Shown one piece after another: positions 2,123 through 48,593 of a DNA stretch of 64,000 nucleotides. The DNA comes from Myxococcales bacterium 68-20 (GTDB taxonomy: Bacteria; Myxococcota_A; Polyangia; Polyangiales; Polyangiaceae), in assembly GCA_001899635.1 (NCBI GenBank), contig MKVQ01000005.1, positions 683,114-747,113 on the forward strand, given 5' to 3'. Under the pieces are notes generated by a model. It searched no databases and had not been told where the DNA came from. It saw only the letters and a list, made by a program, of their open reading frames with translations. The translations under genes and the position numbers were made by a program. Positions within the stretch are counted from its first letter, which is position 1, and each line of letters starts with the position of its first letter.

Positions 2123-3155
2123 TCTTGATGCCCTCCTTCTGGGGAACGCTCGCCTGCTCGAGGTTGTCGGAGAGGCCGATCCCCGGAATGTGCGCGCCTG
2201 CGAGGAGCTTCGGCGGCGCGTAGAGCTCGTAGAACAGCTCCTCCACGACGCGACGGATGAGATGCTCGCCGAAGTTCGTCACCTCGGTGTCCTCGTTCAC
2301 GCAGAGCACGCGATGCGTCTTCTTCACGCTCGCCTTGATCGCGTCCCAGTCGTACGGGTGAAGCGAGCGCAGGTCGATGACCTCGACCTCGATCTTCTCG
2401 CTGCTCGCCAGCTCGTCGGCGGCGGCGACGGCCATCGGGACGTTGCGCCCGTACGTGAGCACGGTGACGTCGCGCCCCTCACGAGCGGTGCGCGCCTTTC
2501 CGATCGGGATGTAGAGCTCCTCGAGCTTCGGCCATTCCGGCTTCCACTTGTTCCGCGCCTCGCCGATCGGAGCGTCGATCATCTTCGAGAGCGTCTTGAG
2601 GTCGCCCGGCTCGCCGGGGATCTCCTCGCCGGGGAGCGCCTTCACGCGGAGGAGCGCCTTCGGCTTGAGGAACATGACGGGGTTCGGGTCGACGATCGCG
2701 CTCAGCATCAGGCCGTAGGCATCGCGCGGGTTCGACGGCATCACGATCTTCCACCCCGGCGTCCGCGTCGCCTGAGCGTCGAACGAGTGGGAGTGGTAGA
2801 TGCTGCCGCGGATGCCGGCGCCCACGGGCGTCATCATCACCATCGGCACGTTCCAGTCACCCGCGCTCGCCCAGTAGGTGTTGCCGGCGATCTTGAGGAG
2901 GTCGATGGTGTTGAAGGCGTAGTCGCAGAACTGGATCTCCGCGACCGGACGACGGCCGGCGAGCGCCAGGCCGATCGCCATGCCGATGACCCCGCGCTCG
3001 TCGAGCGGGGTGTTCCACGCGGTCTTCAGGCTCTGCGTTCCGGTGAAGACTCCGCCGAGCGGCGGCCCGACGTCCTCGCCGAAGATGTCGGTGACGCCGA
3101 GGCGCTCCTCTCCGACGTGGAGCGCCATCCGGATCGCTTGAATCATCGTCGCCAT
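2088..3155 (-). CDS. 2-oxoacid dehydrogenase E1 component, beta subunit
   Basis: 355 residues, full length for the transketolase-like E1 beta family. Visible landmarks are FGEDVG near residue 25, the pyrimidine-binding region around residues 50-110, GSIYHSHS, and the C-terminal transketolase domain with LRSLHPYDWD. With E1 alpha it forms the thiamine-diphosphate heterotetramer that decarboxylates pyruvate or branched-chain 2-oxoacids and passes the acyl group to a lipoyl E2. The gene follows E1 alpha after only 3 bp. Substrate cannot be settled from sequence; the branched-chain/acetoin/pyruvate subfamilies are all possible. No E2 or E3 gene is in the window. Confidence 0.93.
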   Translation of the reverse strand: MATMIQAIRMALHVGEERLGVTDIFGEDVGPPLGGVFTGTQSLKTAWNTPLDERGVIGMAIGLALAGRRPVAEIQFCDYAFNTIDLLKIAGNTYWASAGDWNVPMVMMTPVGAGIRGSIYHSHSFDAQATRTPGWKIVMPSNPRDAYGLMLSAIVDPNPVMFLKPKALLRVKALPGEEIPGEPGDLKTLSKMIDAPIGEARNKWKPEWPKLEELYIPIGKARTAREGRDVTVLTYGRNVPMAVAAADELASSEKIEVEVIDLRSLHPYDWDAIKASVKKTHRVLCVNEDTEVTNFGEHLIRRVVEELFYELYAPPKLLAGAHIPGIGLSDNLEQASVPQKEGIKNALRELARHEP

Positions 3156-3158
3156 GTC

Positions 3159-4214
3159 TCAGCTCTCTCCTGCGACGTAGTTCTTGTCGGCAAAGACGTA
3201 GTCCCAGATCGACTCGGGCTTCGGCTGCGGCTCCTCACGAACACGCTTCGATGCCTCGAGCAGTTCCTCGGTGAACCGCGCGCGCATATCATCCATCTCG
3301 CTGCGAGTTCGCAGCTTCCTCTCCTCGAGCTTCTTCTCGAAGCGTGCGAGGCAGTCGACCTCGGTGGTCACGAAGTTCGCTCCCGAAGCGCTCGAGTGGC
3401 CGTTCAGGCGCGAGACCATCGCCTCGAGGAGGTAGGGCTTGCGCTCGGTGCGCACGTAGTCCATCGCCTTCTTGAGCGCGGCCCAGCTCGTCTCGACGTC
3501 GTTGCCGTCGACCGTCGCGGTCGGCATGCCGAACGCCTTGCCGCGATCGGAGACACGCGCCTCGCCGTGCTGCCCGTCCCAGGGGGTCGAGATACCGTAC
3601 TGGTTGTTCGTCACCAGGATGAGGATCGGCAGCTCATGCCCCTTGCGGGAGCTCCACACGAGGCAGGTCGCGAAGTCGCCCTCCGCCGACCCCGCGTCAC
3701 CGCCGGTGACGATGGTGATGCCCTTCGAGCCGACCGCGCGCTGCGCCATCGCCGTGCCGGGCGCGATCGAGTACTGGACCTCGATTGGCGACGACACCGG
3801 CGCGACGTTCCACTTCCTCGCCGAGTAGTGACCGGCGAAGTTGCGGCCCCGCGAGTAGGGATCGGTCGCGGTGTTCTTCATCTGCCGGAGCGCGTCCACC
3901 GGATCGGCTCCCAGCGCGAGGAGCGTGGCGCTCGAGCGGTAGTGCAGATGCAGGTAGTCGTGCTGGAGGCCCGTCCCCTTGTCGGCGAGGAGGCCGAGCG
4001 GAACGTTGAAGGCCTCCTCACCGGGACCGCCGATCCAGAAGTAGCCGTCGCCCTGACGGTACATCGTGATGAGGCGCTCCTCGAGGACGCGCGCCTTGAG
4101 CATCAGCTCGTGGATGCGGAGCTGGAGCTCGGGAGCGAGGTGGTTCTCGGAACCGTGCGAGGTGGCGCTCCCGCTCGCGAGCGAGGAGGAGGCCGATTGA
4201 GCCGTCGTGGACAT
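3159..4214 (-). CDS. 2-oxoacid dehydrogenase E1 component, alpha subunit
   Basis: 351 residues. The thiamine-diphosphate binding motif is present as GGDAGSAEGD followed about 20 residues later by LVTNNQYG (the usual GDG...NN, here GDA). HLHYRSSA and YSRGRNFAGHY match the E1 alpha substrate and phosphorylation-loop regions. The N-terminal 25 residues are Ser/Ala-rich and probably disordered. First gene of the leftward E1 alpha-E1 beta-GFA cluster, divergent from a lipoprotein gene across a 193-bp spacer that contains a strong dyad. Confidence 0.93.
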   Translation of the reverse strand: MSTTAQSASSSLASGSATSHGSENHLAPELQLRIHELMLKARVLEERLITMYRQGDGYFWIGGPGEEAFNVPLGLLADKGTGLQHDYLHLHYRSSATLLALGADPVDALRQMKNTATDPYSRGRNFAGHYSARKWNVAPVSSPIEVQYSIAPGTAMAQRAVGSKGITIVTGGDAGSAEGDFATCLVWSSRKGHELPILILVTNNQYGISTPWDGQHGEARVSDRGKAFGMPTATVDGNDVETSWAALKKAMDYVRTERKPYLLEAMVSRLNGHSSASGANFVTTEVDCLARFEKKLEERKLRTRSEMDDMRARFTEELLEASKRVREEPQPKPESIWDYVFADKNYVAGES

Positions 4215-9827: not shown

Positions 9828-10436
9828 TCAGAACGAAACGCCGGCCCAGAGGCGCGGCTCCCACTGCGAGATCACACCCACGGTCGTCGAGCTCGTCGTC
9901 GTGAACGCGAGAGGCGTGACGCCGATCACCATGGGGCCGAGCGGGAACTGCGCGCCCATCCCGTAGCGAAGGCCGTACGCGTTCGTGTCACTGAAGAAGT
10001 CACTCTTGAAGTCGAACCACGTGTGGTGAGGAACGAACGTGAAGAGCACCTCGAAGTGGCGGCCGGCTTCGAGCGCGAGCTCGACGACGACCCCGAACGA
10101 GACGTGAATCGCATCGACGTTCTCGTACCGGCGACCTTCGATCCCGAGATCGAGTCGTGACCTCCGCCCGATCCGCAGCCGATAGAGCCCGTCGACCTCG
10201 CCGGCCCATCCGCTCGCCACATCGGGACGTGCGAGCGTGAGTGACGAAGCGAGGGCGACGCGAATGGTCGCCACACGCGAGGCTCCGTCGTCCTGCTTCT
10301 TTGCGTCCGTCGGCGATGCCGGCCGCGACACGACCTCGACCGGCGAGCGCGACGGGCGGCTGCAAGCCTCGCACCCCACCAGATCGATAGGGATAGCCGC
10401 CCAGTCCTTCGGCTTTTCCCGTGGCCGAGGACGCAT
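9828..10436 (-). CDS. Probable outer-membrane beta-barrel protein, small
   Basis: 202 residues from the ATG at 10436. After a basic/polar N-terminus the protein becomes alternating strands from about residue 70 (YRLRIGRRSRLDLGIEGRRY, FGVVVELALEAGRHFEVLF, YGLRYGMGAQFPLGP) and ends RLWAGVSF, with the terminal Phe typical of Bam-inserted barrels. A clear signal peptide is missing from the chosen start, so either the start is wrong or export is unusual. Divergent from the mechanosensitive-channel gene with about 105 bp between starts. Confidence 0.55.
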   Translation of the reverse strand: MRPRPREKPKDWAAIPIDLVGCEACSRPSRSPVEVVSRPASPTDAKKQDDGASRVATIRVALASSLTLARPDVASGWAGEVDGLYRLRIGRRSRLDLGIEGRRYENVDAIHVSFGVVVELALEAGRHFEVLFTFVPHHTWFDFKSDFFSDTNAYGLRYGMGAQFPLGPMVIGVTPLAFTTTSSTTVGVISQWEPRLWAGVSF

Positions 10437-40453: not shown

Positions 40454-41428
40454 ATGGCCCGCCACGCGCCCGCAAAAACAAGCAACGATCGAGCTTCTCG
40501 TGACGACAGCGAAGTGCGCAGCCACGCCCCACGTGGCGCAGCGCGTGGCATCTGGAGCGGGTCGATCAGCTTCGGCTTGCTCCAGATCCCCGTCAGCCTC
40601 ATCCCGGCGGAGAGCCGCTCGGACGAGCTGCACTTCCGACTGCTCGACCGACGCGACCTCGCGCCCGTCCGCTACGAACGGGTGAGCACCGCGACCGGCA
40701 AGCCCGTCGAGTGGAAGGACATCGTCAAGGGATACGAGATCGAGAAAGACAGCTACGTCGTCGTCGAGCCGGAGGACTTCGCGAAGGCGAACGTGAAGGC
40801 GACGCAGACGATCGACATCCAGGACTTCGTCCCGCGCGACCAGATCGATCCGGCGTTCTTCGAGACGCCCTACTTCGTCGTGCCGCAGCCCCGATCGATG
40901 AAGGCGTACGTCCTTCTTCGCGATGCGCTGAAGAAGCGGGACGCGGTGGCGGTCGCGACGTTCGTCCTACGCACCCGCGAGCACCTCGTCGCGGTCATGC
41001 CGGGGAACAACGGAGCGCTCATGCTCGAGGTGCTCCGCTTCGGTCACCAGCTGAAGGACGTCGAGGACGTTCCCCTCCCCGCCCCCTCGAGCACGGCCGC
41101 GCCGAGCGAGCGCGAGCTCGCGATGGCGGACCAGCTCATCGGAGGGATGATGAGCGACTGGGAGCCGCGCAAGTACAAGGACCGGTACTACCGCGACGTG
41201 ATGAAGGTCATCGAGGAGAAGGCAAGCACCGGCGCGACCACGGAGCACCACGCGCGGACGGCCGGCACCGTTGCGCGTGACGACGTGGTCGACCTCCTCG
41301 CCCTGCTCGAGAAGAGCGTTGCGAAGACGGGCCGCGCAGCCAACGAAACGCGACCAGGCCCGAAGAAGGCGCGGGCCACCAGGGCCGGCGGCGCGCGCAA
41401 GGCTGCGAAGAAGAGGCGCGCGGCTTGA
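40454..41428 (+). CDS. ku: Ku DNA-end-binding protein
   Basis: 324 residues. The bacterial Ku core spans about 30-280: IWSGSISFGLLQIPVSLIPA, RYERVSTATGKPVEW, YEIEKDSYVVVEPED, FFETPYFVVPQP and ELAMADQLIGGMMSDWEP. The tail (residues 290-324) is Lys/Arg/Ala-rich, as in many bacterial Ku proteins, and would add DNA binding. Ku dimers encircle DNA ends and recruit LigD for non-homologous end joining. The stop overlaps the ATG of the DUF72 gene (TGATG). Confidence 0.97.
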   Translation: MARHAPAKTSNDRASRDDSEVRSHAPRGAARGIWSGSISFGLLQIPVSLIPAESRSDELHFRLLDRRDLAPVRYERVSTATGKPVEWKDIVKGYEIEKDSYVVVEPEDFAKANVKATQTIDIQDFVPRDQIDPAFFETPYFVVPQPRSMKAYVLLRDALKKRDAVAVATFVLRTREHLVAVMPGNNGALMLEVLRFGHQLKDVEDVPLPAPSSTAAPSERELAMADQLIGGMMSDWEPRKYKDRYYRDVMKVIEEKASTGATTEHHARTAGTVARDDVVDLLALLEKSVAKTGRAANETRPGPKKARATRAGGARKAAKKRRAA

Positions 41429-42447
41429 TGGCCTCTCCGCCCCGAGACACGGAGCGCGGCGCCGGTCGCGAGCACGTGGTGCGGGTCGGCATCTCGGGCT
41501 GGCGCTACCCGTCGTGGCGCGGCGTCTTCTATCCGAAAGGCCTCGCTCAGCGCCGTGAGCTCGAATACGCGAGCCGCCAGCTCCGGACCGTGGAGATCAA
41601 CGGGTCCTTCTACTCGCTCCAGCGACCGTCGAGCTACGTCGAGTGGCACCGGGCGACACCGGACGACTTCGTGTTCGCCGTGAAGGGCGGGCGGTTCATC
41701 ACCCACAACAAGAAGCTGAAGGACTGCGCCGGTGCGCTGTCGAACTTCTTCGCCTCCGGGGTGCTCGCGCTGGACGACAAGCTCGGGCCAATCCTGTGGC
41801 AGCTCCCTCCGCAGCTCTCGTTCCAGTCCGAGCGCATCGAGGCCTTCCTGGCGTCGCTGCCGCGAACGACACGCGAGGCAGCAGAGCTCGCCCGCCGTCA
41901 CGATGGGCGGCTCACGCATGGATCTTGGCTCGACGTGCGCGTCGATCGACCGGTGCTCCACGCACTGGAGGTGCGGCACGATTCGTTCGTCGACCCTGCG
42001 TTCATCCGGCTGCTCCGGAGGGCGAACGTCGCCCTCTGCGTGGCGGACACCGCGGGGACGTGGCCCTACCTCGAGGACGTCACGGCCGACTTCGTCTACG
42101 TGCGCCTCCATGGCGCGAAGCGCCTCTACGCGAGCGGCTACTCGAAGAGCGACCTCGATCGCTGGGCGACGCGCATCGCCGCCTGGCAGCACGGTGAGAC
42201 GCCCACCAGCACCTCGCTCGCGGCACCGGAGACGAGGCCGCCGTCATCGGCCGCCGGACGGGACGTCTACGTCTACTTCGACAACGACGTGAAGGTGCAT
42301 GCCCCGTTCGACGCGATGAACCTCGCGGCGCGCTTTGGTCATGGCCAGCGGGTGGCTTTTCCTCGGAAGGAGGAGCGAAGCGTCGTGGACGCGGTCGGCC
42401 GCGACGATCGCTTTCGCTACGGCCAGCGCCGCAGGAGGAGCGCGTGA
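41428..42447 (+). CDS. DUF72 (YecE-like) TIM-barrel protein between ku and ligD
   Basis: 339 residues from the ATG at 41428, whose first base is the last base of the ku TGA. DUF72 signatures: VGISGWRYPSWRGVFYPKG, TVEINGSFYSLQ, FVFAVKGGRFITHNKKLKD, GPILWQLPPQ, EVRHDSF and VYVYFDNDVKVHAPFDA. The family adopts a TIM barrel distantly like endonuclease IV/xylose isomerase, with unknown chemistry. The position, with overlapping junctions to both ku and ligD, suggests a function in end joining. Confidence 0.93.
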   Translation: MASPPRDTERGAGREHVVRVGISGWRYPSWRGVFYPKGLAQRRELEYASRQLRTVEINGSFYSLQRPSSYVEWHRATPDDFVFAVKGGRFITHNKKLKDCAGALSNFFASGVLALDDKLGPILWQLPPQLSFQSERIEAFLASLPRTTREAAELARRHDGRLTHGSWLDVRVDRPVLHALEVRHDSFVDPAFIRLLRRANVALCVADTAGTWPYLEDVTADFVYVRLHGAKRLYASGYSKSDLDRWATRIAAWQHGETPTSTSLAAPETRPPSSAAGRDVYVYFDNDVKVHAPFDAMNLAARFGHGQRVAFPRKEERSVVDAVGRDDRFRYGQRRRRSA

Positions 42448-45065
42448 AGCGAGGCGCGACCGGGGACGCAGGGCGCTCTCTCGAGCGCTACGAGGCAATG
42501 CGCGACTTCGCCCACACGACGGAGCCGAGCGGACGCAGCGCTCGCTCGGCGACGGGGCGCTCGTTCGTCGTCCAGAAGCACGATGCCCGGCGGCTGCACT
42601 ACGACTTTCGCCTCGAGCACGAGGGTGTCCTCCTGAGCTGGGCGGTGCCGAAGGGCCCCAGCCTCGCACCGGGCGACAAGCGCCTCGCCGTCCAGACGGA
42701 GGACCATCCGATCGACTACCGCGACTTCGAGGGCACCATCCCCGAAGGGCAATACGGCGGCGGGCCGGTGATCGTCTGGGATCGAGGCACGTGGGAGCCG
42801 ATCGGCGACCCCGACGAGGGGCTCGCGAAGGGACGTCTCGACTTCGAGCTCGACGGCGAAAAGCTTCAGGGCCGCTTCATCCTCGTCCGGACGACGATGG
42901 GCAAAGGCTCGAAGAAGCCGACATGGCTCTTGATGAAGCGGAGCGACGAGCACGCAAGGACCGGGTCTGCGGCCGACATCGTCGACGCGCAGCCCGGGAG
43001 CGTCCTCACCGGCCGCACGCTCGATGACGTCCGCGCCGGTGTCCCGGCGACCGCGCGGGAGCGGAAGGCGCGCTCGCGAGCGTCACCGCACGAGCGCACG
43101 ACGACGCCCATCGAGGACCGGCCGGCCGCGCTGCCTCCGTTCGGATCCGTCGCGCCGCAGCTCGCGACGTTCGTGAAGGACGTGCCGAGATCCGGACCGT
43201 GGATCTACGAGATCAAGTACGACGGCTACCGCGCGCTCGCCTGGCTCGATGACGGCGCGGTCCGCATCGCGTCTCGGCGCGGCCTCGACTGGACCGCCCA
43301 GTACCCCGACATCGCGCGCGCGCTTTCACGTGTGCGCGCGCGGACGGCGATCTTCGACGGAGAGGTCGCCTACGTGCGCCCGGACGGCCGCACCGACTTC
43401 CAGAAGCTGCAGAACGCCCTCGGTAGCGGCGCACCGAAGGAGCGGGCGCGGCTCGTCTACTTCGTCTTCGATCTCCTCTTCTACGACGGCGCCGATCTCC
43501 GCGGAGAGCCGCTCGAGCTACGCAAGGACACGCTGCGCACCATCCTCGCCGGAGAGGCGCCGCCCCTCGTGATGAGCAATCACGTGGAAGACGGGGCGGC
43601 GTTCTTCCACGAGGCATGCAAGATCGGGCTCGAGGGCGTCATCGGCAAGCGCACCGACCGCCCGTACACGTCCGGGCGCACCCGGGACTGGATCAAGGTC
43701 AAGTGCGAGCAGCGCCAGGAGCTCGTCATCGTCGGCTACACGCCGCTGAAGGGCAGCCGGAGCGGCATCGGTGCGCTGCTCCTCGGTGTCTACGACGGAG
43801 ACGACCTGCGCTACGCGGGCAAGGTCGGAACGGGCTTCTCGTATGCCACGCTGAAGGACCTCGCAGCGCGCCTCGGCGCGCTCGAGATCGCCGCGCCTCG
43901 CCTGACGAACCCTCCACGCATGCGCGACGTTCAATGGGTGGAGCCGAAGCTCGTCTGCGAGGTTCGCTTCTCGGAATGGACGGCGGACGGGGTACTCCGC
44001 CAGTCGTCGTTCGAGGGGCTTCGCCTCGACAAGAGCCCGCGCGAAGTCCGCCGCGAGACCCCGCAGCCGCCCCCGAGATCGATCGCGCCATCCCCAGCTG
44101 AACCCGCTGTGCGCGCACGCGCTCCACTAGTGAGACGAGACGCGAGGCCACGAGTGGGCGGCATCGTCGTCAGCCATGCCGACCGCATCATCGACAGCAC
44201 GAGCGGCCTCACGAAGCTCGACCTCGTTCGCTTCATGGAGGCGGTGGCAGGCGCGATGCTCCCCTTCGCCGCGAAGCGGCCGCTGATGCTCGTCCGCTGT
44301 CCGGCCGGCACGCAGGCGACCGTGTTCCGCCAGTCCGATCGGCGCGCGGGGAAGAGTCCGCGCTGCTTCGTGCAGAAGCACGAGGGAAAGGGCCTCGAGG
44401 AGGTCGGGCTCGGCACGACCATCCTCGGCGACGAGCCGGCGATCTACGTGACGAGCACGCGCCAGCTCGTCCTGCTCGCCCAGAACAACGCCTTCGAGCT
44501 GCACGGCTGGGGCTCGACCCTGCCGCGATGGGATCGCCCGGATTGGATCGTGTTCGACCTCGACCCCGACGAGGCCCTCTCGTTCGAGCGCGTCATCGAG
44601 AGCGCATTCGAGATGCGCGAGGCGCTCCGCACGCTCCACCTCGAGAGCTGGGTGAAGACCACCGGCGGCAAGGGCCTCCACGTGGTCGTGCCGATCGCCC
44701 GCCGCTACGACTGGGCCACGGTCCGGAGCGCGTCACGGGAGATCGCGCGCCTGATGGCGCGGGCGGCGCCAGACCGCTACGTCGCGACCGTGTCGAAGCG
44801 CGCGCGCGCCGGGAAGATCTTCATCGACTGGATGCGCAATGCCGAAGGCGCGACCGCGGTCCTCCCCTACTCCGCGCGTGCGCGACCGGGTCTACCCGTC
44901 GCCGTTCCGATCGCGTGGAAGGACCTTCGCAGCGTCGTTCCCGAGGAGCTCACCATCGCGACCGTCCCCCGGATGCTCGCACGCCGGAGGACCGATCCAT
45001 GGGCGGACCTCCTGTCGAGCAAGCAGACCTTGCCGCGCGAGCTGCTCGACGCCATCGCCGAGTAG
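42444..45065 (+). CDS. ligD: Multifunctional DNA ligase D (phosphoesterase-ligase-polymerase)
   Basis: 873 residues from a GTG overlapping the DUF72 stop (GTGA). The phosphoesterase domain is first (about 35-165: FVVQKHDARRLHYDFRLEH, EGQYGGGPVIVWDRGTW). The ligase domain follows (about 220-540), with the adenylation motif KYDGYRALAW near residue 256 and TRDWIKVKCEQRQELVIVGY. The primase-polymerase domain is last (about 570-870), with the catalytic aspartates in FDLDPDE near residue 702, TGGKGLHVVVPI and FIDWMRNAEGATAVLPYSAR. The PE-Lig-Pol order matches Pseudomonas LigD. It processes, fills and seals Ku-bound ends. Confidence 0.97.
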   Translation: MKRGATGDAGRSLERYEAMRDFAHTTEPSGRSARSATGRSFVVQKHDARRLHYDFRLEHEGVLLSWAVPKGPSLAPGDKRLAVQTEDHPIDYRDFEGTIPEGQYGGGPVIVWDRGTWEPIGDPDEGLAKGRLDFELDGEKLQGRFILVRTTMGKGSKKPTWLLMKRSDEHARTGSAADIVDAQPGSVLTGRTLDDVRAGVPATARERKARSRASPHERTTTPIEDRPAALPPFGSVAPQLATFVKDVPRSGPWIYEIKYDGYRALAWLDDGAVRIASRRGLDWTAQYPDIARALSRVRARTAIFDGEVAYVRPDGRTDFQKLQNALGSGAPKERARLVYFVFDLLFYDGADLRGEPLELRKDTLRTILAGEAPPLVMSNHVEDGAAFFHEACKIGLEGVIGKRTDRPYTSGRTRDWIKVKCEQRQELVIVGYTPLKGSRSGIGALLLGVYDGDDLRYAGKVGTGFSYATLKDLAARLGALEIAAPRLTNPPRMRDVQWVEPKLVCEVRFSEWTADGVLRQSSFEGLRLDKSPREVRRETPQPPPRSIAPSPAEPAVRARAPLVRRDARPRVGGIVVSHADRIIDSTSGLTKLDLVRFMEAVAGAMLPFAAKRPLMLVRCPAGTQATVFRQSDRRAGKSPRCFVQKHEGKGLEEVGLGTTILGDEPAIYVTSTRQLVLLAQNNAFELHGWGSTLPRWDRPDWIVFDLDPDEALSFERVIESAFEMREALRTLHLESWVKTTGGKGLHVVVPIARRYDWATVRSASREIARLMARAAPDRYVATVSKRARAGKIFIDWMRNAEGATAVLPYSARARPGLPVAVPIAWKDLRSVVPEELTIATVPRMLARRRTDPWADLLSSKQTLPRELLDAIAE

Positions 45066-45457: not shown

Positions 45458-45663
45458 GATTCCTCCAAGCTACGGACACACGACCTCTACCAGAGAGGCG
45501 ACTATCACTTATCGGCCGCGCGTAGGACCGTCAACCGGCCTTCTTTTCGCGGTCCGCTCGATCCGTCGGCGTCATCCGAGGCACCGCTCGTCTCAACGCG
45601 CGACACGCGCGCGCCTTACACCCCGGACGGGTGAGCGCGGCCAAATGGTATCGTCCGCTCCGC

Positions 45664-46371
45664 ATGCGTGGTTGGACGGACCTCACGGGCATCTTCGTCA
45701 TCGGTATCGTGCTTGGGCTTGGTGCTCTGGGCTGCACGCGCGGTGCTCCCCCCGCCCCCGAAGGCGTCGACGCGACCGTGGCTCCGCTCCCGGGCCCGGT
45801 CACGACGCTGTCCGGAACGACCGACGCCGGTCCGGCCGCCAAGCCCGAGACCTCGCTCGACGCGGGCTCCGCTCCGCCTGCAGCCGCGGCATCGGCCGTC
45901 GACGCGGGCGATCCGGGGAGCCTGCCGCAGACACGCGACCGTCCGGAAGCGTCGAGCCCTGCGCTCGACGAACGCGCAGCAGCGCTCTGGGACGCCATCG
46001 TCCACGACGATGCCGATCGCGGGATGGCGTTCTTCTTCCCGGTCACCGCATACGAGCAGGTCAAGGCGATCGCCTATCCCGCGTCCGACTGGCGCCGCCG
46101 GCTCGTCGCCGCTTACAAGCGAGACATCCACGCGCTCCACGAGCGCCTCGGCAGCAAGGCGGAGTCGGCGAAGCTCGTGCGCCTCGACGTCCCGAACGAG
46201 CGTGCGCGCTGGGTCGAGCCGAACGAGGAGTCGAACAAGCTCGGATACTGGCGCGTGTACGGCACCCGCATCGTCTACGAGGTCGACGGTAAGGAGCGCG
46301 CGCTGGACGTCACCTCGCTCATCTCGTGGCGCGGCGAGTGGTACGTCGTCCACCTGACCGGCTTCAAGTGA
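45664..46371 (+). CDS. Lipoprotein with small C-terminal alpha/beta domain
   Basis: 235 residues from the ATG at 45664 (GTG at 45631 is in frame but weakens the signal peptide). Lipobox VLGLGALGC, then an Ala/Pro/Asp-rich stalk to about residue 95. The C-terminal 135 residues (ALWDAIVHDDADRGMAFFFP, RAYKRDIH-like helix, LDVTSLISWRGEWYVVHLTG) have the look of an NTF2-like fold. No family or catalytic residues recognised. Next on this strand is the alpha/beta hydrolase, beyond the tRNA region. Confidence 0.7.
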   Translation: MRGWTDLTGIFVIGIVLGLGALGCTRGAPPAPEGVDATVAPLPGPVTTLSGTTDAGPAAKPETSLDAGSAPPAAAASAVDAGDPGSLPQTRDRPEASSPALDERAAALWDAIVHDDADRGMAFFFPVTAYEQVKAIAYPASDWRRRLVAAYKRDIHALHERLGSKAESAKLVRLDVPNERARWVEPNEESNKLGYWRVYGTRIVYEVDGKERALDVTSLISWRGEWYVVHLTGFK

Positions 46372-46454: not shown

Positions 46455-46492
46455 TGTTGGTGGGCCGAGCGGGGCACGATTCCGGGACCTAC
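46455..46492. repeat. Displaced copy of the tRNA-Lys 3' end (attachment-site-like direct repeat)
   Basis: 38 bp matching 47642-47679 at 36 of 38 positions (differences at 46469 and 46481), same orientation. It covers the CCA end, acceptor 3' strand and T-arm of tRNA-Lys but none of the 5' half. This is the pattern left when an element integrates at a tRNA 3' end. Confidence 0.8.
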
Positions 46493-46654
46493 TGAGCGGC
46501 GCTCGTAACGGTCGAGGCCCTTCACGACAGATGATCGCGTCGCGTCGCGTCGCGTCGTCCGCGGACGCTCGGGACTCAGACGCTCCTGACGAAATCGGGT
46601 GGAACGGGCCGCGCTCTGTGCGGGCCGGTGTCAGTGCTTGGGCGCCAGTACGTC

Positions 46655-47206
46655 TCAGCGGTACGGCGCACCGCAGCCCGCACACGTCTTGAGATCAACA
46701 GGCGTGAGCTCTCCGCAGAACTGGCACCGTGTGACGAGTATCTGACGCTCGATCACGCGCTCGACAACGACCGAACCTACTGCCGAAGGGGCTGAGCCGG
46801 CGACCGTAGAGGACGAGGTGTCCGTGACGCCCGCCTCGGATTCGGGCGCGTCACATCCAGTTCGCCGACGCACCTCGTTGAAGACCTCCTCATCGGAGAA
46901 GGCCTCCAGAACCGCCGCCACCTTCGCCTTCCTTCGCTCGTAGCGGAGGTCTTCGAGCGTGACCACCCCGGCAAGAAAGTCGTCAAAGATTGCGTCAACG
47001 GCCTCGGAGAGCGGTCCCGTCTCAATGTCCTGTCGTCGTCGGATCTCACTGAGAACATGCTCGTCACTGAACCCATCGAGGACAGCGCAGACCTTGGGCT
47101 TGCGTCGCTCGCGACGTAGATCTTCGGTCGACGCCACCTCGCGCAGGAAGTCGTCGAAGATGGCGTCCACCGCCTCCTGAAGTGCGGATCGGTCAGAGCC
47201 TGGCAC
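46655..47206 (-). CDS. Protein with internal 48-residue duplication and C-terminal zinc ribbon
   Basis: 183 residues from a GTG at 47206. Two tandem copies of a helical unit (residues 10-57 and 67-114) begin EAVDAIFDDFL and end with IRRR/VRRR, at about 65% identity; each contains ERRK and FSDE. A Ser/Thr/Val linker leads to a four-cysteine zinc ribbon, CQFCGELTPVDLKTCAGCG, at the C-terminus. Family unknown to me. Third codon positions are noticeably less GC-rich than in neighbours, and the gene lies between the tRNA-Lys gene and its displaced 3' fragment, so transfer is likely. Confidence 0.75.
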   Translation of the reverse strand: MPGSDRSALQEAVDAIFDDFLREVASTEDLRRERRKPKVCAVLDGFSDEHVLSEIRRRQDIETGPLSEAVDAIFDDFLAGVVTLEDLRYERRKAKVAAVLEAFSDEEVFNEVRRRTGCDAPESEAGVTDTSSSTVAGSAPSAVGSVVVERVIERQILVTRCQFCGELTPVDLKTCAGCGAPYR

Positions 47207-47641
47207 GCGACCATTCTACGGCCATGACTGCTCGAAGGAGGAAGACATCGCGGAGTCACGTGCCCCGTCGCTTGCCTCGGGCGAGGGCGTACGCGGAACG
47301 TCGGCCTCAGAACTCCTGCAACTCGCCCGCCTGCCGTCCCGGCGGGAGGTCAGGATCGTCCGGCGGGACGATCCCTGAGCGGGAGACCCTGGCCGGGGAG
47401 CGTCGTCACGTAGACCTGACGGGAGCCGCACGCCCGCCACTCGGCGGCAGCCTCCTGGGTCGCATCCACGATGACCTCGTCGTCGGCCGAGACCTGGACG
47501 TAGAGGTCTCCGGGCGGGTCAGAGGCGGCGCAGCCAGCCAAGCTCAGCGGCGCCAGGGCTGTGATGAATGAGTGATGGCCGCTGGCGGGTCCAGTGGACC
47601 GATTGGACGCCGGGGGGCCCCCTACCCCCTATTTCCGGCGT
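47207..47641. other. Remainder of the tRNA-bounded interval; one doubtful lipoprotein reading
   Basis: About 435 bp between the zinc-ribbon gene and the tRNA. Apart from the start-less lipoprotein frame at 47350-47541, I see no integrase, no other gene and no clear repeat. Confidence 0.4.
47350..47541 (-). pseudogene. Possible truncated small lipoprotein gene
   Basis: From a TTG at 47541 the frame encodes 63 residues, but the credible signal sequence begins further upstream: SFITALAPLSLAGC carries a good lipobox, followed by DLYVQVSADDEVIVDA. No ATG, GTG or TTG precedes this signal sequence within the open frame, so the start has been lost or is non-canonical. It ends at 47350. It lies inside the tRNA-bounded interval, which would fit decay after rearrangement. 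Confidence 0.3.
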
Positions 47642-47644
47642 TGT

Positions 47645-47720
47645 TGGTGGGCCGACCGGGGCACGATCCCGGGACCTACGGATTAAAAGTCCGCAGCTCT
47701 ACCAACTGAGCTATCGGCCC
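47645..47720 (-). tRNA. trnK: tRNA-Lys (anticodon UUU)
   Basis: 76 nt read on the minus strand, starting GGGCCGATAGCTCAGTTGG. All four arms pair: acceptor GGGCCGA/TCGGCCC, anticodon stem with loop CUUUUAA giving anticodon UUU, T-arm CCGGG/CCCGG. The CCA end is encoded. Its 3' 38 bp region is duplicated at 46455-46492. Confidence 0.97.
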
Positions 47721-47810: not shown

Positions 47811-48593
47811 ATGGAGCGCTGGAGCCCGCTCTGGACGGGGTTTCTCGAGGCTGTCGCGCTCGTCACGCTGGCGGGTGAAGCCTGCACGAAGCCTCAGCCG
47901 AGAGCCGACGCGGAGCCCGGCGCGAGCGCGACGACGCGAGCGGCCGAGGTGGTGGCTCCGCCGGCGCCCCCGCGCTCGAGCCCGATCGGGACGGTCGCGG
48001 TGCCGGACGACCGCGACGTGCTCGTCGTCACCGGCGAGACGAGACGCCCCATCGTCTACCTCCACGGGATGTGCGGCGAGGCCCGCTCCGATCTCGAGGC
48101 GTGGTCCGCGAGCGTGCGCGAGCACGGGACCGTCATCGCGCTCGAGGGCGACGCGGCCTGTCCGCGCGGCAGCGGCCGATCGTGGTCGGTGAGCCCCGAC
48201 GCGCTCGACACGCGCATCGACTCGGCGATCGAAGCCGTCTCCTCCGCACGCGCGATCGAGCTCGACCCTCGCGAGGTGATCGTGATCGGCGAGTCGATGG
48301 GAGCCTCTCGCGCGCTCGGCCTCGCGAGCCGCTTCCCGGCAAAGTACACGCGCCTCGTGCTCGTTGGCGGGCCCGAGACGCCTTCTGCCAAGGACCTGCG
48401 CGGCGTGAAGGCCGCCGCGCTCCTCGCCGGGGAGCACGAATCCCAGGCGAAGATGAGGCAGGGGACTGCCCGCCTCGAGAGCGCCGGCGTGGACGCGCGC
48501 TTCTGGGAGCTGGCCGGCGCGACCCACGGAACGTACGGCAGCGACGGCGCTCGTACGATGGGCGAGGCCGTCGCGTTCGTCGCGCAGCGCTGA
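47811..48593 (+). CDS. Alpha/beta hydrolase, probably exported
   Basis: 260 residues from the ATG at 47811. A hydrophobic N-terminus (FLEAVALVTLAGEAC) with a weak lipobox precedes an Ala/Pro linker. The hydrolase fold has the oxyanion region IVYLHGMCGEARSD, the nucleophile elbow VIGESMGASRAL, an acid loop at LLAGEHESQ and the histidine in LAGATHGTYG. It should hydrolyse an ester or peptide bond; the substrate is unknown. A 14-bp hairpin follows about 75 bp after the stop. Confidence 0.85.
   Translation: MERWSPLWTGFLEAVALVTLAGEACTKPQPRADAEPGASATTRAAEVVAPPAPPRSSPIGTVAVPDDRDVLVVTGETRRPIVYLHGMCGEARSDLEAWSASVREHGTVIALEGDAACPRGSGRSWSVSPDALDTRIDSAIEAVSSARAIELDPREVIVIGESMGASRALGLASRFPAKYTRLVLVGGPETPSAKDLRGVKAAALLAGEHESQAKMRQGTARLESAGVDARFWELAGATHGTYGSDGARTMGEAVAFVAQR

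What the first reader, a model, noticed from the sequence alone, without database searches (positions are those of the whole stretch)
46455..47720. 1.19-kb interval bounded by tRNA-Lys and a displaced copy of its 3' end
A 38-bp direct repeat (36/38) of the tRNA-Lys 3' end lies 1187 bp downstream of the intact gene. This is the architecture left by site-specific integration at a tRNA. The interval holds a compositionally distinct gene and no integrase, so it may be a minimal satellite element, a decayed island, or a cargo unit mobilised in trans.
Basis: partly seen in the sequence, partly recalled or inferred. Interest (0 to 1): 0.68.

Follow-up and report, generated by a model that had tools for sequence, protein, structure and literature searches.

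The report
Integrase-less island at a tRNA gene
A 1.2-kb stretch of DNA sits where mobile elements of this bacterial family often insert, at the end of a lysine tRNA gene; it holds no insertion enzyme, but it carries a small, intact-looking gene built from two copies of a piece of an anti-phage defence protein.

Summary
The repeat is real: tRNA-Lys(UUU) lies on the minus strand (47645-47720) and a displaced copy of its 3' half (36/38) lies at 46455-46492, the only such copy found in the 11.9-Mb genome. The island reading is supported: the same tRNA end has displaced copies in at least seven other genomes of the family, and tyrosine integrases abut it in seven. The interval has no integrase, and its protein is absent from 37 relatives.

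Mobilisation in trans is not supported. In six of nine readable tRNA/copy pairs the copy starts exactly at the anticodon loop; here all seven loop bases differ, so the end is truncated or was made by a T-arm-type integrase. Best filing: a decayed, CIME-like remnant. No clean empty site was found.

The cargo is the unexpected part: a 183-aa protein with two tandem copies of a ~50-aa module otherwise seen here only in DISARM DrmB proteins (26 of 26 loci), plus a zinc ribbon. The copies diverged under constraint (dN 0.27, dS 1.94). The genome has no other DrmB match. A decoy or modulator of DISARM-type helicases is possible but untested.

The parts
47645..47720 (-). tRNA-Lys(UUU), intact; attL-like end
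   Evidence: ARAGORN
46455..46492 (-). displaced copy of the tRNA 3' end (tRNA nt 42 to 3 bases past the CCA, 36/38); attR-like end
46493..47644 (.). interval (1152 bp) between the two ends; no integrase
46655..47206 (-). cargo gene, 183 aa, GTG start: two DrmB-type modules, linker, zinc ribbon
47033..47182 (-). module 1 (residues 9-58)
46862..47011 (-). module 2 (residues 66-115)
46673..46726 (-). zinc ribbon CxxC-x10-CxxC (residues 161-178)
   Evidence: sequence; model; tail matches in three relatives
47350..47541 (-). small ORF (63 aa, TTG); the frame is open upstream and looks like a lipoprotein signal by eye, without an ATG/GTG/TTG there; possibly a broken gene
   Evidence: one match in the genome, itself
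45631..46371 (+). flanking gene 'lipoB' on the displaced-copy side
   Evidence: homologues in 8 of 20 relatives' loci
47811..48593 (+). flanking alpha/beta-hydrolase-like gene 'ABH' on the tRNA side
   Evidence: homologues in 4 of 20 relatives' loci; Pfam matches below cut-off

Best explanation
A mobile element with a tyrosine integrase inserted into the 3' end of tRNA-Lys(UUU), supplied a new 3' half to the gene and left the original one 1.15 kb away. Deletions then removed the integrase and most of the element and left a short cargo remnant, a CIME-like island that probably can no longer excise because the displaced end lacks the anticodon-loop bases. The surviving cargo gene encodes a constrained 183-aa protein with two copies of a DrmB module and a zinc ribbon. 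Shown: the two ends, use of the site by integrases in the family, absence of the cargo protein from the relatives searched, no integrase inside, constraint between the two modules. Inferred: the original integrase, the deletions, present immobility, and that the cargo protein works by binding a DrmA/YprA-type helicase or its DNA.
For: Repeat and orientation; single copy in the genome. Same tRNA end displaced in G001, G023, G309, G334, G367, G372 (two copies) and G373. A tyrosine-integrase frame abuts tRNA-Lys in G023, G334, G367, G372, G020, G373 and G012 (own profile); PF00589 over cut-off for the 6 of these 7 that were submitted. In 6 of 9 readable pairs the copy starts at nt 32, the first base of the anticodon loop. 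From the lipoB stop to the same GGTGGGCC landmark is 87 bp at the displaced copy and 85 bp at the tRNA 3' end on G006 contig C152. The slot holds other genes in genus mates: Uma2-family in G003, a protein without Pfam match in G005, an ORF weakly like phrog_4350 in G006. Full-length cargo protein in 0 of 37 relatives. dN 0.27, dS 1.94 over 50 codons.
Against: No integrase or recognisable piece of one in the interval. No clean empty site: of the four interval-free relatives (G009, G004, G002 of the genus, G022 of the family) all have the tRNA inverted relative to lipoB, and only G009 shows both flanking genes; G006 C152 begins inside the tRNA, so it may be an empty site or another displaced end. 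The G000 copy does not start at nt 32 as most others do. In G309, G334, G373 and for one G372 copy the tRNA and the copy are on different contigs, so those intervals are not shown to be bounded by them. The G023 integrase has only a weak match among G000's integrase loci (best E 1.5e-4). G001 has another interval without integrase at this tRNA, which could hint at elements moved in trans.
Confidence: 0.75

Rival explanations
1. A minimal element that is still mobilised in trans by an integrase of another element acting on both ends (an active CIME or satellite).
For: Both ends are present; integrases using this tRNA exist in the family; a second integrase-less interval stands at the same tRNA in G001; the cargo is constrained.
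Against: The displaced end lacks all seven anticodon-loop bases, the point where 6 of 9 pairs begin; no other copy of the interval was found (which scored only 3 candidates per genome) and its protein is in 0 of 37 relatives.
Confidence: 0.13
2. The displaced copy arose by a partial duplication of the tRNA, or is a decayed second tRNA-Lys, without any integration.
For: No integrase inside; the copy does not start at the usual crossover base; the tRNA neighbourhood has been rearranged, as its orientation differs between relatives; a 74-nt tRNA-like duplicate exists elsewhere in the genome, within the tRNA array.
Against: Homology covers exactly the 3' half and a few bases beyond, as in the integrase-linked pairs of relatives; foreign-looking, constrained cargo in between; recurrent use of this site.
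Confidence: 0.08
3. About the cargo: it is an inhibitor of DISARM (a DrmB decoy). It is compatible with the best explanation above.
For: Two detached copies of a module seen only in DrmB; no other DrmB match in the host genome, as a mobile anti-defence gene would allow.
Against: No test; no phage, viral or plasmid element carries such a protein in the searches made; the module's role in DrmB is unknown; the zinc-ribbon tail resembles tails of proteins in three relatives, so a household role is as easy to imagine.
Confidence: 0.2
4. About the cargo: it is a regulator or partner of another helicase of the YprA family in the host, or of DNA, unrelated to DISARM.
For: The host has two MZB/DUF1998 ORFs of 986 and 1805 aa; the module is helical and the tail is a zinc ribbon.
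Against: The module was not matched in those ORFs: module and DrmB searches of this genome returned the cargo gene alone.
Confidence: 0.25

Closest known systems
tDNA genomic islands (Islander; PMC4383910, start of abstract and passages seen)
   Same: regenerated tRNA and displaced 3' fragment mark the ends; tyrosine integrases of relatives abut this tRNA
   Different: only 1.15 kb and no integrase inside; displaced fragment lacks the anticodon loop
CIME, cis-mobilizable element (PMC5704250, passages seen)
   Same: ends kept, no integration or transfer genes; tRNA-Lys 3' ends are also targets of IMEs there
   Different: no evidence that the parent was an ICE or IME; one end may be too damaged to work
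DISARM DrmB (PMC9142583, passages seen; PDB 7s9v chain B)
   Same: two copies of a ~50-aa module that lies at about residues 262-319 of the 618-aa Trichormus DrmB
   Different: no DUF1998/MZB, no N-terminal half, no DrmA gene beside it, module duplicated, own zinc ribbon

Membership tests
tDNA genomic island | intact tRNA gene plus displaced tRNA fragment in direct orientation | tested here: met
tDNA genomic island | integrase gene inside the island | tested here: not met
   six frames read; integrase profile on L162; two minus-strand ORFs searched against Pfam and PADLOC, (the plus-strand frames were only read)
tDNA genomic island | target used by integrases in related genomes | tested here: met
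tDNA genomic island | empty site in a close relative | tested here: inconclusive
   interval-free relatives have the tRNA inverted; G006 contig breaks in the tRNA
CIME | attL and attR retained | tested here: inconclusive
   both ends present, but the displaced one lacks nt 32-38
CIME | integration and transfer genes lost | tested here: met
CIME | derived from an ICE or IME and mobilisable in cis | not tested
   no parent element with matching ends was found
phage satellite | integrase and packaging or capsid-hijacking genes | tested here: not met
DISARM DrmB | DUF1998/MZB domain | tested here: not met
   none by Pfam in the cargo protein; present in Trichormus DrmB
DISARM DrmB | drmA beside the gene | tested here: not met
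   neighbouring ORFs are other genes; by contrast 22 of 22 module loci tested have DrmA beside DrmB

The most novel reading that the evidence does not exclude
The cargo gene is a detached, duplicated DrmB module acting as an inhibitor (decoy) of DISARM-type helicases, carried by an element that inserts at tRNA-Lys; the seven differing loop bases would then be the trace of an integrase that tolerates a mismatched overlap rather than of decay.
Probability: 0.15. Interest if true: 0.65.

Novelty: new member of a known kind. Interest (0 to 1): 0.4.

Why it matters
Integrase-less remnants at tRNA genes are a known kind, so the interval itself is ordinary. The cargo is not: a module otherwise seen here only inside DrmB has been detached, doubled and kept under constraint. 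One library search with three phrases found no paper that holds 'anti-DISARM', 'DISARM inhibitor' or 'anti-DISARM protein', so a protein that blocks DISARM would be a new handle on how DrmAB is activated. The set of tRNA-Lys ends in this family is also a ready series for studying where integrases cut.

Tried and rejected
Rejected: chance repeat (E 3e-13); one of many fragments (4 places in the genome); satellite (no such genes); cargo as a plain decaying DrmB fragment (dN well below dS and module doubled; but dS is near saturation and rests on 50 codons).

Led nowhere: Pfam, NCBIfam, PADLOC and PHROGs gave nothing convincing for the cargo protein (best Pfam E 0.0034 below its cut-off, best PADLOC DrmD E 0.016); solved-structure sequences best E 0.5; Foldseek of its model, nothing at E <= 0.001 in PDB or viral models; phages none; viral contigs none; genome contigs with the whole protein none. 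Plasmids: 6 records, 4 annotated DUF1998 and 2 hypothetical; I looked at the neighbours of one of them, and another (AP018182.1) came back as L111. The DrmB model was poor (mean pLDDT 50.9); I use it only to note that its module segment shows the same four-helix pattern (blocks of pLDDT 79-84).

Limits: (interval DNA, 107 other family genomes) scored only 3 first-look candidates per genome and its match list was cut, so absence rests mainly (37 relatives, all candidates scored) and on the module searches (which scored at most 23 and 35 candidates per genome). Numbers of displaced copies are lower bounds. The regions were chosen partly because they held copies, so 7 integrases is no frequency. 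One search read the wrong strand for several loci and was replaced. The tRNA scan reached only the fetched stretches.

Full report
OBSERVATION. tRNA-Lys(UUU) is at 47645-47720 on the minus strand. Its 3' half recurs in direct orientation at 46455-46495, 36/38 over the core, so the interval lies 3' of the tRNA. A search of the whole genome (G000, 11.9 Mb, 52 contigs) gave four places: the tRNA, this copy and two weaker matches. In a scan of 100 tRNAs in 60 fetched loci (40 of G000, 20 of relatives) this copy (38 nt, E 3e-13) was the strongest partial displaced 3' copy in G000. Against that: inside the tRNA array of contig C1 there is a stronger, full-length tRNA-Thr-like duplicate (74 nt, E 6e-22) and several weak matches; elsewhere in G000 the next is a 21-nt exact copy of a tRNA-His 3' end 9.9 kb away.

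SURROUNDINGS. The tRNA lies between 'lipoB' (45631-46371) and 'ABH' (47811-48593). Of 20 loci of relatives round tRNA-Lys, 8 hold lipoB and 4 hold ABH. From the lipoB stop to the same landmark (GGTGGGCC) is 87 bp at the displaced copy of G000 and 85 bp at the tRNA 3' end on G006 contig C152, so the displaced copy stands where an original 3' end would be expected. Genus mates have other genes in the slot: a Uma2-family protein in G003, a protein without Pfam match in G005, and in G006 at least 1 kb with an ORF weakly like phrog_4350 (E 7e-5). G009, G004 and G002 (same genus) and G022 (same family) have no interval (17-123 bp between lipoB and tRNA), but there the tRNA has the opposite orientation; only G009 shows both flanking genes. 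This is against a simple empty-site proof.

THE SITE IS USED. Displaced copies of the same tRNA end were found in G001, G023, G309, G334, G367, G372 (two) and G373. In G309, G334, G373 and for one G372 copy the copy is on another contig than the tRNA. Tyrosine-integrase frames abut tRNA-Lys in G023, G334, G367, G372, G020, G373 and G012, of 36 loci searched; six of these were given to Pfam and all six pass the PF00589 cut-off, the seventh was not submitted. I aligned ten own-tRNA/own-copy pairs. G006 cannot be read because the contig begins inside the tRNA. Of the other nine, six (G023, one of G372, G367, G373, G309, G334) start exactly at nt 32, the first base of the anticodon loop; the other G372 copy starts at about 34; G001 starts at about 30 with two mismatches in the anticodon, and its repeat runs at least 27 bases past the tRNA (G367's runs at least 45 past, with one mismatch); G000 starts at 42 (39 and 40 also match), with all seven loop bases different.

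READING. Crossovers in tRNA genes fall into the anticodon loop and the T-loop/T-acceptor region (Islander, PMC4383910, passages). The G000 end is either a truncated anticodon-type site or a T-arm-type site; I cannot decide. In the first case the present ends could hardly be recombined by integrases of the kind seen here. An element that has lost integration and transfer genes but kept its ends is called a CIME (PMC5704250, passages). I call the interval CIME-like, not a proven CIME, because the parent is unknown and one end may be defective.

THE CARGO. ORF 46655-47206 (minus) encodes 183 aa. tblastn against plasmids gave 6 cyanobacterial records, 4 annotated DUF1998 and 2 hypothetical; in NC_007412.1 the gene lies between drmA and drmC. 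Residues 1-59 match residues 262-319 of that Trichormus DrmB at 53% (E 2e-16, one-subject search), and residues 66-115 match the same stretch at 48%. A three-row profile found the module in 13 of 281 other genomes of the phylum, in 6 of 182 other genomes of the order, three of them shared with the first set, and in 10 loci of genome contigs. All 23 loci align with DrmB (L120 in two frames, L109 cut short), and so do the 3 new loci: 26 of 26. DrmA lies beside it in 22 of 22 loci tested; L106-L109 were not given to that test. Only the window's protein is short and has two modules. DrmB as a query matched nothing else in G000; G000 has two MZB/DUF1998 ORFs, of 986 and 1805 aa. Between the two modules 20 codons differ silently, 15 change the residue and 15 are identical; dN 0.27, dS 1.94. 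This speaks for selection on both copies, with the caution that dS is near saturation. The AlphaFold2 model (mean pLDDT 79, pTM 0.51) shows four helices per module, a disordered linker 128-154 and a zinc ribbon. The zinc-ribbon tail matches proteins of three relatives; in one, a membrane helix seems to precede it (by eye). Structural searches gave no significant match.

WHAT IT MAY DO. In the Serratia DrmAB structure the N-terminal half of DrmB moves on DNA loading and the DUF1998 domain is the hinge (PMC9142583, passages); a 2025 preprint describes DrmB as OB-CON-DUF1998 (PMC12458937, passages). That the module belongs to the connector region is my inference from its position. A detached pair of such modules could compete for the helicase or its DNA. 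Nothing here tests this. One search with three phrases found no paper on an anti-DISARM protein; this says nothing about papers outside the library.

VERDICT. Ordinary in kind (a decayed island at a tRNA), with one cargo gene of real interest.

Noticed in passing
window 47645-47720; L010, L011, L014: The T-loop of tRNA-Lys(UUU) reads AUCGUGC or AUCGUUC in G000, G003, G005 and G006, against the UUCRANN consensus (PMC9897764, passages); the other 43 of 47 distinct tRNA-Lys rows have UUC[AG]A. The same four have the tRNA inverted relative to lipoB compared with G009, G004, G002 and G022.
   Followed up: partly
L045:1-4013 (G001 contig C324): Another interval without integrase (about 3.9 kb) at tRNA-Lys, with an HNH nuclease ORF (3117-3812) resembling PtuB-type defence nucleases; its repeat runs past the tRNA into a GC-rich, terminator-like stretch.
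   Followed up: partly
G000:C1:231135-239730 (L137): Dense tRNA array, 24 tRNA-model matches in 8.6 kb, including a second tRNA-Lys(UUU) with a consensus T-loop.
   Followed up: no
L151:87-107 and 9995-10070 (G000 contig C6): 21-nt exact copy of a tRNA-His 3' end 9.9 kb downstream of the gene, possibly a second island.
   Followed up: no
L063, L064 (G000 contigs C47 and C6): An integrase match with an in-frame stop beside tRNA-Gly and a partial integrase beside tRNA-Met.
   Followed up: no
L056:6961-18808 (G023): 11.7-kb island with integrase between tRNA-Lys and a 45-nt exact copy of its 3' end.
   Followed up: partly
window 40454-45065: Ku-like, DUF72-like and ligase-D-like genes in a row (names recalled from the sequences, from no family search).
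   Followed up: no
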